DNA of 64,000 bases from a virus. Position numbers and translations under genes: made by a program. Location of the stretch: positions 1 through 64,000 of the IMG/VR virus record IMGVR_UViG_3300035171_000016; one strand, given 5' to 3'. Below the pieces are notes generated by a model that was not told where the DNA came from, searched no databases, and saw only the letters and a list, made by a program, of their open reading frames with translations. Of this stretch, positions 49,342 to 59,107 are shown in pieces; within the stretch, counting starts at the first letter, position 1; every line of letters begins with the position of its first letter.

Positions 49342-49375
49342 AACAAAAAATCCATCAGAAACTAATCTGATGGAT
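49342..49375 (-). terminator. Rho-independent terminator
   Basis: Perfect hairpin AAATCCATCAGA / TCTGATGGATTT with T-run on the minus strand; the stop codon of 49362-49556 lies inside it. Separates the tRNA region from the rnpB unit. Confidence 0.83.
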
Positions 49376-49556
49376 TTGATTTATTAAAAAAATTTATGAC
49401 AATTGTTTTATTACATTTGCCGCAAGATATTGTATCTGGAATAAATCCGGTAGTAGCCCATTTTTGAAAATGGCCGCATTTACATTTTAATTTAAATTGA
49501 GGAACTTGGCCGTATACACCGACCTTGCGACTTCTAATTCTTATTGCGTTTTTCAT
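49362..49556 (-). CDS. zinc-ribbon protein, 64 aa
   Basis: KLKCKCGHFQKWATTG and SCGKCNKTIV give CxC and CxxC pairs 22 residues apart. Basic N-terminus (IRIRSRKVG). Last gene before the terminator, just downstream of two tRNA-Thr genes. Confidence 0.67.
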   Translation of the reverse strand: MKNAIRIRSRKVGVYGQVPQFKLKCKCGHFQKWATTGFIPDTISCGKCNKTIVINFFNKSNPSD

Positions 49557-50054: not shown

Positions 50055-50336
50055 TTACCATAAATGAGAAAAATCAATCTCTCTGGTTCCAACTTGAATG
50101 CCTATGCTCCCATTTAGAGTCGAAAGATGCGTGGCCGTTAGAAAAGAAAAGAAAAGAAAAGAAAAGAAAAGAAAAGAAAAGAAAAGAAATGAACTATGAT
50201 TAGGACATTCAAAATAGAATAGGTCATTCCCACTTCTTTCTCCAGTTAAGGGGTCGAACTTGATTTCCACAGAATACTCTTTTATAATAAGAGGGCTTCT
50301 GCATTTCTCACAAAAAACATCAGATTTAGTTTTCAT
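50055..50336 (-). CDS. zinc-ribbon gene with in-frame pentanucleotide repeat, 93 aa
   Basis: FCEKCRSPLIIKEYS and ECPNH give a ribbon. Then nine copies of a 5-bp unit (50141-50185) encode a LFFSF repeat, and the last 30 residues follow. In another frame the end reads NGHASFDSKWEHRH..., more protein-like, so repeat number probably sets the C-terminus. Confidence 0.6.
   Translation of the reverse strand: MKTKSDVFCEKCRSPLIIKEYSVEIKFDPLTGERSGNDLFYFECPNHSSFLFFSFLFFSFLFFSFLTATHLSTLNGSIGIQVGTREIDFSHLW
50141..50185. repeat. (GAAAA)9 microsatellite
   Basis: Nine perfect GAAAA units on the plus strand plus a partial tenth, inside the coding part of 50055-50336. Unit length is not a multiple of three. 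Confidence 0.97.
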
Positions 50337-50767: not shown

Positions 50768-50796
50768 AGTATAATACTTTTATGCTTTAAAGTCAA
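50768..50796 (-). promoter_or_regulatory. Sigma70-like promoter, leftward
   Basis: TTGACT, 17-nt spacer, TATACT; drives 50540-50761 and the tRNAs beyond it. Confidence 0.62.
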
Positions 50797-50803
50797 TACA
50801 AAT

Positions 50804-50878
50804 TGGTGCGCCTAGATGGTAACAATCCATCTTCTTTCGGGTAAGGGCCGATTGCTTCATCATTAAAGCTTTAAGCGC
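50804..50878 (-). tRNA. tRNA-Lys(CTT)
   Basis: Acceptor GCGCTTA/TAGGCGC, A73, CCA encoded, D-stem GCTT/AAGC, T-arm GATGG/CCATC. Anticodon loop CCCTTAC has C33 instead of the usual U33, which is odd. Confidence 0.78.
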
Positions 50879-50882
50879 AAAA

Positions 50883-50968: not shown

Positions 50969-51046
50969 TGGTACTTCTACTATGTTACCAGCATAGATAA
51001 TTAGATTCAGAGTCTAATATAATTAAGGTATTTATATTATAGAAGT
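50969..51046 (-). tRNA. tRNA-Gln(CTG)
   Basis: Acceptor ACTTCTA/TAGAAGT perfect, anticodon stem TTAGA/TCTAA, loop CTCTGAA, T-arm CTATG/CATAG, CCA encoded. Confidence 0.92.
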
Positions 51047-52007: not shown

Positions 52008-52124
52008 TTAATGATGGCAACAGCTTCCCACCATAGTAAACATAGAGAAAATAGCAATCCATGATAAGTTAATAGATATATCTTTTAAAATCTTTTTGAT
52101 TTCGTTAAATTGTTTATCGTTCAT
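52008..52124 (-). CDS. 38-aa membrane peptide
   Basis: MNDKQFNEIKKILKDISINL, then a hydrophobic end with GSCCHH. Follows a consensus promoter (52131-52159) by 7 nt. Confidence 0.5.
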   Translation of the reverse strand: MNDKQFNEIKKILKDISINLSWIAIFSMFTMVGSCCHH

Positions 52125-52130
52125 GTATTG

Positions 52131-52159
52131 ATATTAATATAAAAAATATAAGAAGTCAA
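52131..52159 (-). promoter_or_regulatory. Sigma70-like promoter, leftward
   Basis: TTGACT, 17-nt spacer, TAATAT; drives 52008, 51742 and tRNAs beyond. Confidence 0.68.
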
Positions 52160-52167
52160 TATTAAAA

Positions 52168-52243: not shown

Positions 52244-52247
52244 AAAC

Positions 52248-52323
52248 TGGCGCGGGTTTCGCTTGAATTGAAATGTATCAACTCAACCAAGTTCCTTTTG
52301 TCTAACTTGGAATAGGAGCCCGC
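52248..52323 (-). ncRNA. CCA-ended three-way-junction RNA, tRNA-sized but not a tRNA
   Basis: 76 nt in line with flanking tRNAs (4- and 5-nt spacers). Terminal stem GCGGG/CCCGC and a 3' GCCA. Inside are only two hairpins: CCAAGTT/AACTTGG (7 bp, 10-nt loop) and TTGAGTTGA/TCAATTCAA (9 bp, 6-nt loop). No anticodon arm or T-loop. Confidence 0.6.
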
Positions 52324-52328
52324 ATAAA

Positions 52329-54339: not shown

Positions 54340-54519
54340 TTATAATTTAATTCCATCAAAATCAACAGAATTCAATTCAAACTCTTCTGGATTAGATTTA
54401 CATTCTTTCGCCTTTTCAAAGGCTAGTTTTTCTAAATCTTCTATAGTTAATTCAACTCTGCAAGTATCGCAGCCAGTCCAGTTTTTTCGCTTCATCCATA
54501 CTGTAGTTTTAATTGTCAT
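54340..54519 (-). CDS. hypothetical protein, 59 aa
   Basis: MTIKTTVWMKRKNWTGCDTC start with two Cys, then LEKLAFEKAKECKSNPEEF. First gene behind promoter 54526-54554. Confidence 0.6.
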   Translation of the reverse strand: MTIKTTVWMKRKNWTGCDTCRVELTIEDLEKLAFEKAKECKSNPEEFELNSVDFDGIKL

Positions 54520-54525
54520 AGTTTT

Positions 54526-54554
54526 ATGATAATATAAAAAATTATAAAAGTCAA
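54526..54554 (-). promoter_or_regulatory. Sigma70-like promoter, leftward
   Basis: TTGACT, 17-nt spacer, TATCAT; drives 54340 to 53395. Confidence 0.63.
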
Positions 54555-54560
54555 TAAAAA

Positions 54561-54636
54561 TGGTAGCCTATGTTGGCTCTGCCCCAACCACCTTTCCCTT
54601 ATCAAGAGATTGCTCTGCTAAATGAGCTAATAGGCC
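54561..54636 (-). tRNA. tRNA-Ile(GAT)
   Basis: Acceptor GGCCTAT/ATAGGCT, D-stem GCTC/GAGC, anticodon loop TTGATAA, T-arm GTTGG/CCAAC, A73, CCA encoded. Confidence 0.92.
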
Positions 54637-55053: not shown

Positions 55054-55054
55054 T

Positions 55055-55143
55055 TGTTGTAAGTGTTCAATACAGTTCAGACCGGAGCAGCGGGAATAAG
55101 ATGCCGCCGCATTCTCTTCACCCTATGACCTAAGTTACAACAA
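55055..55143 (-). ncRNA. 89-nt RNA with 9-bp terminal helix
   Basis: TTGTTGTAA pairs with TTACAACAA. Inside, GCGGC/GCTGC and ATGC/GCAT hairpins. The acceptor-like helix recalls a tRNA, but there is no T-arm and no CCA. 2 nt from tRNA-Gly. Confidence 0.5.
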
Positions 55144-55423: not shown

Positions 55424-55648
55424 TTACTTTAAAACTTTTTCAAAATGCGGCCATTCATAATCTCCTTCTGGCCAAGGAGTTCTTTCTATTCCTAGATTTT
55501 CATTTAATTTTATCTTTCCGATAAAACAATTAACGTGTTTTGCGGCCTTTCTAGCTTTTGCGATACTATCAAAAATACCAACAAACTCCCATTCTAATTC
55601 TTTATTGATAATATCAGGAACATATCCTACTAAATATAATTGTTTCAT
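55424..55648 (-). CDS. hypothetical protein, 74 aa
   Basis: KQLYLVGYVPDIINKELEWEF, then IAKARKAAKHVNCFIGKI and WPEGDYEWPHFEKVLK. Resembles short DUF7336-type phage proteins; role unknown. 8 nt from tRNA-Pro. Confidence 0.62.
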   Translation of the reverse strand: MKQLYLVGYVPDIINKELEWEFVGIFDSIAKARKAAKHVNCFIGKIKLNENLGIERTPWPEGDYEWPHFEKVLK

Positions 55649-55654
55649 AGTTTT

Positions 55655-55683
55655 ATGATAATACTAAAATTTTGCTTTGTCAA
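55655..55683 (-). promoter_or_regulatory. Sigma70-like promoter, leftward
   Basis: TTGACA, 17-nt spacer, TATCAT; drives 55424-55648 and the tRNA block 55415-54561. Confidence 0.68.
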
Positions 55684-55690
55684 CTAAAAT

Positions 55691-55768
55691 TGGAAGCCAG
55701 CCGCAGTAACGCTCTGCGTAAACAAGAATTTTGCAGATTCCGGGGTTAATCTTACTCCCTCGCTGGCT
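55691..55768 (-). tRNA. tRNA-Cys(GCA)
   Basis: Acceptor AGCCAGC/GCTGGCT, D-stem GGG/CCC, anticodon stem GGAAT/ATTCT, loop CTGCAAA, T-arm CGCAG/CTGCG, U73, CCA encoded. Confidence 0.93.
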
Positions 55769-57316: not shown

Positions 57317-57393
57317 TGGCGGGACTAGCCGGAATCGAACCGAGCTTTCTTACCGTGACAGGGTAAGCGATGAAACCACTCTCTTTTAATCCC
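57317..57393 (-). tRNA. tRNA-Asp(GTC)
   Basis: Acceptor GGGATTA/TAGTCCC, anticodon stem TTACC/GGTAA, loop CTGTCAC, G73, CCA encoded. Confidence 0.92.
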
Positions 57394-57403
57394 ATAAATT
57401 GAA

Positions 57404-57571
57404 TTACCAATAAACTTTATTACCAATCCGAGTCTTGTCGGTATTGGCAAAGCGTTCTATTAGGCGAGCGCATCCTATTCAATTCTATCGGCAGAATAAA
57501 CTGCTTACAATGATATTGAATTAAGTCCTATATAATATATGAGAACTATTTAATTATGGTGTTATTGGTAA
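57404..57571 (-). ncRNA. 168-nt multi-branched RNA of unknown class
   Basis: Perfect 10-bp terminal helix TTACCAATAA/TTATTGGTAA. Inside are four arms: AATTAA..GTTCT/AGGAC..TTAATT; CAATATC/GATAGAATTG carrying hairpin GCAG/CTGC; GCG/CGC; and CCAAT-CCG/CGG-ATTGG. No tRNA parts, no open reading frame. Between tRNA-Asp and tRNA-Leu(TAG). Confidence 0.6.
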
Positions 57572-57573
57572 AA

Positions 57574-57657
57574 TGGTCGCCCTGACAGGACTTCAACCTG
57601 CAAAACCACCCGTTCTAAGCGGGCAAGCTGTGGCGTTCGCTACAAGGTCACAGGGCG
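57574..57657 (-). tRNA. tRNA-Leu(TAG)
   Basis: Acceptor CGCCCTG/CAGGGCG, anticodon stem CCCG/CGGG, loop CTTAGAA, T-stem GCAGG/CCTGT, A73, CCA. Long D region (~26 nt, with GCGAAC..ACAGC) and 6-nt variable loop, like the TAA and CAA isoacceptors. Confidence 0.88.
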
Positions 57658-58165: not shown

Positions 58166-58175
58166 TTAAAATAAC

Positions 58176-58240
58176 AATCGGTATGCTTCCATTACACTAA
58201 GGTTTCGCTCCTATTTGGACTTGAACCAATACCTCCGATT
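58176..58240 (-). ncRNA. tRNA-like RNA in circularly permuted order
   Basis: Reading the RNA 5' to 3': AATCGG, TTGG-TTCAAGT-CCAA (a T-arm), TAGG-loop-CCTTA, TA, GTGT-AATGGAA-GCAT (a D-arm with GG), A, CCGATT. AATCGG and CCGATT pair as an anticodon stem. All parts are spaced as in tRNA, but the 3' half precedes the 5' half. The joined acceptor is only 3-4 bp and there is no CCA. Confidence 0.5.
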
Positions 58241-58244
58241 TAGA

Positions 58245-58333
58245 TGGTGGCGCGGTGAAAGTAACGCTCTTTTTGCTTAACTTCTCAACTATTTTAGCAA
58301 AGGTTTTACAGACCCTCGTTGAGGACACCGGCC
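58245..58333 (-). tRNA. tRNA-Tyr(GTA)
   Basis: Anticodon stem AGGGT/ACCTT, loop CTGTAAA; long variable arm; T-loop AGCGTTA; acceptor GGC-CGGTG/CACCG-C-GCC; A73; CCA. The D region is only ~10 nt (CCTC-AAC-GAGG at most), so the D-arm is reduced or missing. Confidence 0.83.
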
Positions 58334-58334
58334 A

Positions 58335-58556
58335 TTAAATTTTACTTATAAATCTTTTATTAAAATATAAATTATCTTTTTTTAATTTAATAAACTCTTC
58401 AATTTTATTTGCAAGATTAACTAGTTTATCATCTTTAAGATATTTGAAACATCCGTTTTTAATTAAGACTCCTATAATATCTTCTCCTTCTTGTGCTGAT
58501 AGGTTATCAAAAATAAGACCTATTGATATTTGTTCGTTTTTTGTTAGTTGTTTCAT
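58335..58556 (-). CDS. hypothetical protein, 73 aa, between tRNAs
   Basis: ATG 58556 (MKQLTKNEQISIGLIFDNLS); a longer frame would be made of tRNA-Ala and ncRNA sequence. Helical, Lys-rich end. 1 nt from tRNA-Tyr and 3 nt from tRNA-Ala. Confidence 0.63.
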   Translation of the reverse strand: MKQLTKNEQISIGLIFDNLSAQEGEDIIGVLIKNGCFKYLKDDKLVNLANKIEEFIKLKKDNLYFNKRFISKI

Positions 58557-58908: not shown

Positions 58909-59066
58909 GATAACTGCTTTCGCAGCCGCCATATTATCTCCGCGATAAGCTCGGAGTCCGGGTTCTGCTTTCGCATAACACCCTATGACCGATTAGTGAT
59001 TTTTTATACCATATCACCGGATTTTACTTACCGGAGGCTCACTGTTTGAGTTCTAAGCCTTAAATT
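58909..59066 (-). ncRNA. structured leader RNA of the tRNA operon (~158 nt)
   Basis: Six hairpins in a row: GGCTTA/TGAGCC; CCGG/CCGG; TGAT/ATCA; GGG..TGC-GAAA-GCA..CCC; CTCCG/CGGAG; GATAA..CTGC-GAAA-GCAG..TTATC. Two carry GAAA (GNRA) tetraloops on the same TGC stem. Starts just after the promoter and runs straight into tRNA-Gly. No reading frame. Confidence 0.58.
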
Positions 59067-59078
59067 CTTACTTTCTAT

Positions 59079-59107
59079 ACTCTAATACCTAAAATCTGTT
59101 TTGTCAA
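59079..59107 (-). promoter_or_regulatory. Sigma70-like promoter of the tRNA operon, leftward
   Basis: TTGACA, 17-nt spacer, TAGAGT. Lies immediately after a terminator, so it opens a new transcript for the leader RNA and tRNA genes. Confidence 0.68.

What the first reader, a model, noticed from the sequence alone, without database searches (positions are those of the whole stretch)
57404..57571. 168-nt five-way-junction RNA inside the tRNA array
A perfect 10-bp terminal helix (TTACCAATAA/TTATTGGTAA) encloses four independent arms. There is no tRNA part and no reading frame. Size and compact branching suggest a stable functional RNA, comparable to the unexplained stable RNAs in other phage tRNA clusters.
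Basis: seen in the sequence. Interest (0 to 1): 0.7.

Follow-up and report, generated by a model that had tools for sequence, protein, structure and literature searches.

The report
Structured RNA spacer in phage tRNA array
Between two tRNA genes of an unusual uncultured phage lies a 168-base stretch that should fold into a compact five-armed RNA when transcribed with the tRNAs, but no relative of it could be found, so whether it does anything remains unproven.

Summary
On the minus strand, the strand of all tRNAs in this 49.6-59.1 kb array, window 57404-57571 has a perfect 10-bp terminal helix enclosing four arms, no tRNA part and no convincing reading frame. It fills the gap between tRNA-Leu(UAG) and tRNA-Asp(GUC). 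The fold is more stable than all 200 shuffles (z -4.2). A perfect 10-bp helix at both ends of this spacer arises in about 0.1% of shuffles. However, 10-bp inverted repeats of span 120-200 nt are not rare in the window (26 counted), and three sliding windows elsewhere have lower folding z-scores. Rfam has no hit. The phage is nearly an orphan. Best reading: a self-folding spacer RNA co-transcribed with the tRNAs and released by tRNA end-processing, comparable to the non-tRNA RNAs of the T4 cluster. A chance-structured spacer is a serious rival. A second spacer (55054-55143) has a similar 9-bp terminal helix, and the array holds unusual and broken tRNAs. Interest is modest.

The parts
57404..57571 (-). 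168-nt structured non-tRNA element (five-way junction)
   Evidence: fold z -4.2; pair probabilities; no Rfam hit
57562..57571 (-). P1 terminal helix, 5' arm UUACCAAUAA
   Evidence: sequence; mean pair probability 0.93 for 9 of 10 pairs
57404..57413 (-). P1 terminal helix, 3' arm UUAUUGGUAA
   Evidence: sequence
57524..57547 (-). arm P2 (6+4 bp)
   Evidence: mean pair probability 0.83-0.92
57477..57521 (-). arm P3 (7+2+4+4 bp)
   Evidence: mean pair probability 0.69-1.0
57452..57471 (-). arm P4 (3+2 bp, short)
   Evidence: mean pair probability 0.96-0.98
57420..57450 (-). arm P5 (8+4 bp)
   Evidence: mean pair probability 0.95-0.97
57574..57657 (-). tRNA-Leu(UAG) with encoded CCA, immediately upstream; not called by ARAGORN
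   Evidence: own cloverleaf search
57317..57393 (-). tRNA-Asp(GUC) with encoded CCA, immediately downstream
   Evidence: ARAGORN, Rfam tRNA 33.5 bits for 57320-57393
59079..59107 (-). possible array promoter TTGACA-17-TAGAGT
   Evidence: consensus scan only; numbers of such sites are near the shuffle mean
49348..49377 (-). possible terminator at the far end of the array (12-bp stem, then T-rich tail)
   Evidence: consensus scan

Best explanation
The element is a self-contained RNA domain that separates two tRNAs in a long polycistronic tRNA transcript read on the minus strand. Shown by computation: its two ends are perfectly complementary, it is predicted to fold on itself rather than with neighbouring tRNAs, and it holds no tRNA part. 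Inferred: it is transcribed with the array, cut free as a roughly 170-180 nt RNA when the 3' end of tRNA-Leu and the 5' end of tRNA-Asp are matured by the ordinary tRNA-processing enzymes (RNase P and 3'-end nucleases), and survives for a time because it is compact. Its most likely role is in cis, as a spacer that keeps out of the folding of neighbouring tRNAs. A function in trans is possible but has no support.
For: Array position and strand. Fold z -4.2 and -4.4 for the whole 180-nt gap, the most structured of ten stretches between and beside the tRNAs that were tested. Terminal helix at both ends of the gap, p about 0.001. Few predicted pairs with the flanking tRNAs: 5.4 against 18.4 +/- 8.9 for shuffled spacers, 2% of shuffles as low. 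A second spacer of the array (55054-55143) has a similar 9-bp terminal helix, p 0.00075, chosen after the fact. No terminator was found in it.
Against: No homologue, hence no covariation. Window-wide, 10-bp inverted repeats of this span are not rare (26), and three windows elsewhere have lower folding z. The predicted folding of the flanking tRNAs is not significantly better with the native spacer than with shuffled ones (22% and 11% of shuffles do as well). Its G+C (0.327) is near the window mean (0.314), unlike the two flanking tRNAs (0.52-0.60). No expression data.
Confidence: 0.45

Rival explanations
1. An ordinary tRNA-array spacer whose structure is largely chance, picked because a reader scanned 64 kb for hairpins.
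For: 26 perfect 10-bp inverted repeats of span 120-200 nt exist in the window; three windows elsewhere reach lower z; G+C is near the window mean; gaps of 100-180 nt with no long ORF and z down to -4.6 occur in tRNA arrays of other phage contigs.
Against: Terminal helix exactly at both ends of the spacer (0.07-0.1% of shuffles) together with z -4.4 for the whole gap.
Confidence: 0.32
2. A trans-acting small RNA gene (for example a regulator, decoy or protein-binding RNA) carried in the array, like the RNA species of unknown function in the T4 tRNA cluster.
For: Size, compact branching and location; precedents of structured RNAs near phage tRNA islands (PMC12286853).
Against: No homologue in any collection searched; no Rfam family; no own promoter better than 9 of 12 matches.
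Confidence: 0.18
3. A relic of one or two decayed tRNA genes.
For: Unusual or broken tRNA parts occur elsewhere in the array, for example 58166-58343.
Against: No tRNA-model match inside the element at E up to 10; no T-loop with a matching stem, no 7-nt anticodon loop among its arms and no CCA after the terminal helix (read from the sequence).
Confidence: 0.05

Closest known systems
RNA species 1 and 2 (RNA C and D) of the bacteriophage T4 tRNA cluster (from general knowledge; no paper on them was found in the library searches)
   Same: non-tRNA RNA of 100-200 nt encoded among phage tRNA genes, function unknown
   Different: the T4 RNAs are demonstrated stable species; here only a prediction exists, and no sequence comparison with them was made
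ROOL and GOLLD RNAs
   Same: structured RNAs of unknown function, often near phage or prophage tRNA islands (PMC12286853)
   Different: far larger (many GOLLD members exceed 800 nt); no Rfam match here
Spacers of other phage tRNA arrays
   Same: gaps of 100-180 nt without a long ORF, some with strong folding z-scores
   Different: their ends were not tested for a terminal helix, and no sequence similarity was found

Membership tests
T4-type stable RNAs of phage tRNA clusters | encoded among tRNA genes on the same strand | tested here: met
T4-type stable RNAs of phage tRNA clusters | accumulates as a discrete stable RNA | not testable with these tools
   no expression data
T4-type stable RNAs of phage tRNA clusters | sequence or structural homology to T4 RNA C/D | tested here: inconclusive
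   no T4-like record among phage BLAST hits of the element, but fast-evolving RNAs would be missed
ROOL / GOLLD | match to the Rfam covariance model | tested here: not met
tRNA or tRNA relic | tRNA covariance-model match inside the element | tested here: not met
conserved structured RNA family | compensatory base changes among homologues | not testable with these tools

The most novel reading that the evidence does not exclude
The array encodes a set of non-tRNA RNAs, at least 57404-57571 and 55054-55143, each closed by a long terminal helix and cut out by tRNA processing: a class of small multi-arm RNAs of phage tRNA arrays with a shared function.
Probability: 0.1. Interest if true: 0.65.

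Novelty: new member of a known kind. Interest (0 to 1): 0.3.

Why it matters
If the RNA is real and stable it adds a case to a small and old puzzle: why phage tRNA clusters carry non-tRNA RNAs. The array as a whole, with about 32 tRNAs found by a relaxed search, many of them not called by ARAGORN, is a useful test bed. As it stands the element is a prediction from one sequence.

Tried and rejected
Rfam at gathering threshold and at E up to 10: only a sub-threshold plus-strand match to HPnc0260 (32.8 bits against 59), taken as chance. BLAST of the element in phages: one 48-base match to Phage Phass-1 (E 0.04) with no annotated feature under it and no annotated tRNA within 4 kb, taken as chance. 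Exact 16-20-mers in IMG/VR: none with the rest of the element or with a called tRNA nearby. Single-sequence covariance model R1: only itself in 36 records; best other hits 20.1 bits, E 0.03, and 18.9 bits, E 0.06, in loci where ARAGORN calls no tRNA, taken as chance. Terminase relatives (50-61%): contigs of up to 54 kb without a tRNA match, so their arrays were not reached. Terminase search in bacterial genomes: none. A shared motif ATAATTAAATA as promoter: not above chance. A switch between P1 and P5 through the repeated AUUGGUAA: predicted probability 0 for the one alternative that was indexed correctly. In one search the P4 and P5 indices were off by one; one search has the right ones.

Full report
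Setting. The window is part of a 147,760-base IMG/VR virus record. The phage has no near relative in the phage collection (24 kb of the window searched). Its terminase has one 61% relative on a 5-kb IMG/VR contig and a group at about 50% on contigs of up to 54 kb that show no tRNA match. Other genes include a DnaB-like helicase, ribonucleotide reductase, DNA polymerase, a UvsX-like recombinase and nicotinamide phosphoribosyl transferase. Between 49.6 and 59.1 kb lies a tRNA array on the minus strand, mixed with small ORFs. ARAGORN tRNAs there; a relaxed cloverleaf search with encoded CCA finds about 32, many with T-loops that depart from TTCRA. Promoter-like sites occur on the minus strand, the one nearest the array start being TTGACA-17-TAGAGT at 59107-59079, and a 12-bp stem followed by a T-rich tail lies at 49377-49348. 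These are consensus matches only.

The element. Window 57404-57571 fills the gap between tRNA-Leu(UAG) (57574-57657) and tRNA-Asp(GUC) (57317-57393). Read on the minus strand it has a 10-bp terminal helix and four arms. The minimum free energy is -43.2 kcal/mol, z -4.2, 0 of 200 shuffles as stable. Pair probabilities are high for all arms; P4 has only five pairs. With both flanking tRNAs included P1 drops to 0.46, and in a wider context it is 0.94. There is no tRNA-model match inside it at E up to 10.

How unusual. In a sliding scan of the window the element has the fourth-lowest z of 761, and three windows elsewhere are lower. There are 26 perfect 10-bp inverted repeats of span 120-200 nt in the 64 kb, so the helix alone is not special. 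A 10-bp helix with both arms at the ends of this spacer occurs in 0.07% to 0.1% of shuffles. Of ten stretches tested between and beside the tRNAs, this one has the lowest folding z (-4.4). A second spacer, 55054-55143, has a 9-bp terminal helix (TTGTTGTAA/TTACAACAA), p 0.00075, but its boundary was chosen after seeing it.

Homologues. None was found by BLAST in phages or plasmids, by exact patterns in IMG/VR, by BLAST of the element against 24 related phage records, or with a covariance model of the single sequence over 36 records and further loci. Structure therefore cannot be tested by covariation.

Mechanism. The best-supported reading is a self-folding spacer RNA released by tRNA end-processing. 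It predicts few contacts with the flanking tRNAs (5.4 expected pairs against 18.4 +/- 8.9 for shuffled spacers, 2% as low), although predicted tRNA folding is not significantly improved. Low contact follows in part from the strong self-structure, so it is not independent evidence. Release and stability are inferred. A chance-structured spacer is the main rival, and a trans-acting RNA is possible but unsupported.

Comparison. The nearest known kind is the set of non-tRNA RNAs in phage tRNA clusters (T4 RNA C and D, from general knowledge). ROOL and GOLLD share the neighbourhood (PMC12286853) but not size or sequence model. Verdict: observation confirmed, interpretation partly supported, interest modest.

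Noticed in passing
58166-58343 (minus strand): Tangle of tRNA parts next to tRNA-His: a Tyr-GTA-like anticodon arm, a T-arm with loop TTCAAGT, and downstream of it a D-arm (GTGT AATGGAA GCAT). One reading is a circularly permuted tRNA core (anticodon stem AATCGG/CCGATT as terminal helix, end-helix p 0.039); Rfam instead gives a weak normal-order tRNA, 14 bits against 29.
   Followed up: partly
55054-55143 (minus strand): Another non-tRNA spacer closed by a 9-bp terminal helix TTGTTGTAA/TTACAACAA; no convincing Rfam hit.
   Followed up: partly
about 55119-55130 and about 58982-58993: The 12-mer GGTCATAGGGTG (minus strand) occurs in two non-tRNA stretches of the array, one of them the possible 5' leader 58909-59072.
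   Followed up: no
50785-50882, 50969-51046, 52244-52328, 55691-55768 (minus strand): tRNA-like genes with unusual arms or T-loops (e.g. Gln-CTG with T-loop CTGGTAA, Cys-GCA with AGCGTTA) that ARAGORN does not call.
   Followed up: partly
about 50143-50190: Run of AAAAG pentanucleotide repeats inside a small minus-strand ORF (FLFFSFLFFSF...) in the array.
   Followed up: no
55645-55690, 54516-54561, 52121-52166: Three similar 46-nt stretches (72-76% to the reference) that hold TTGACA/TTGACT-17 promoter-like sites on the minus strand, perhaps internal array promoters.
   Followed up: no
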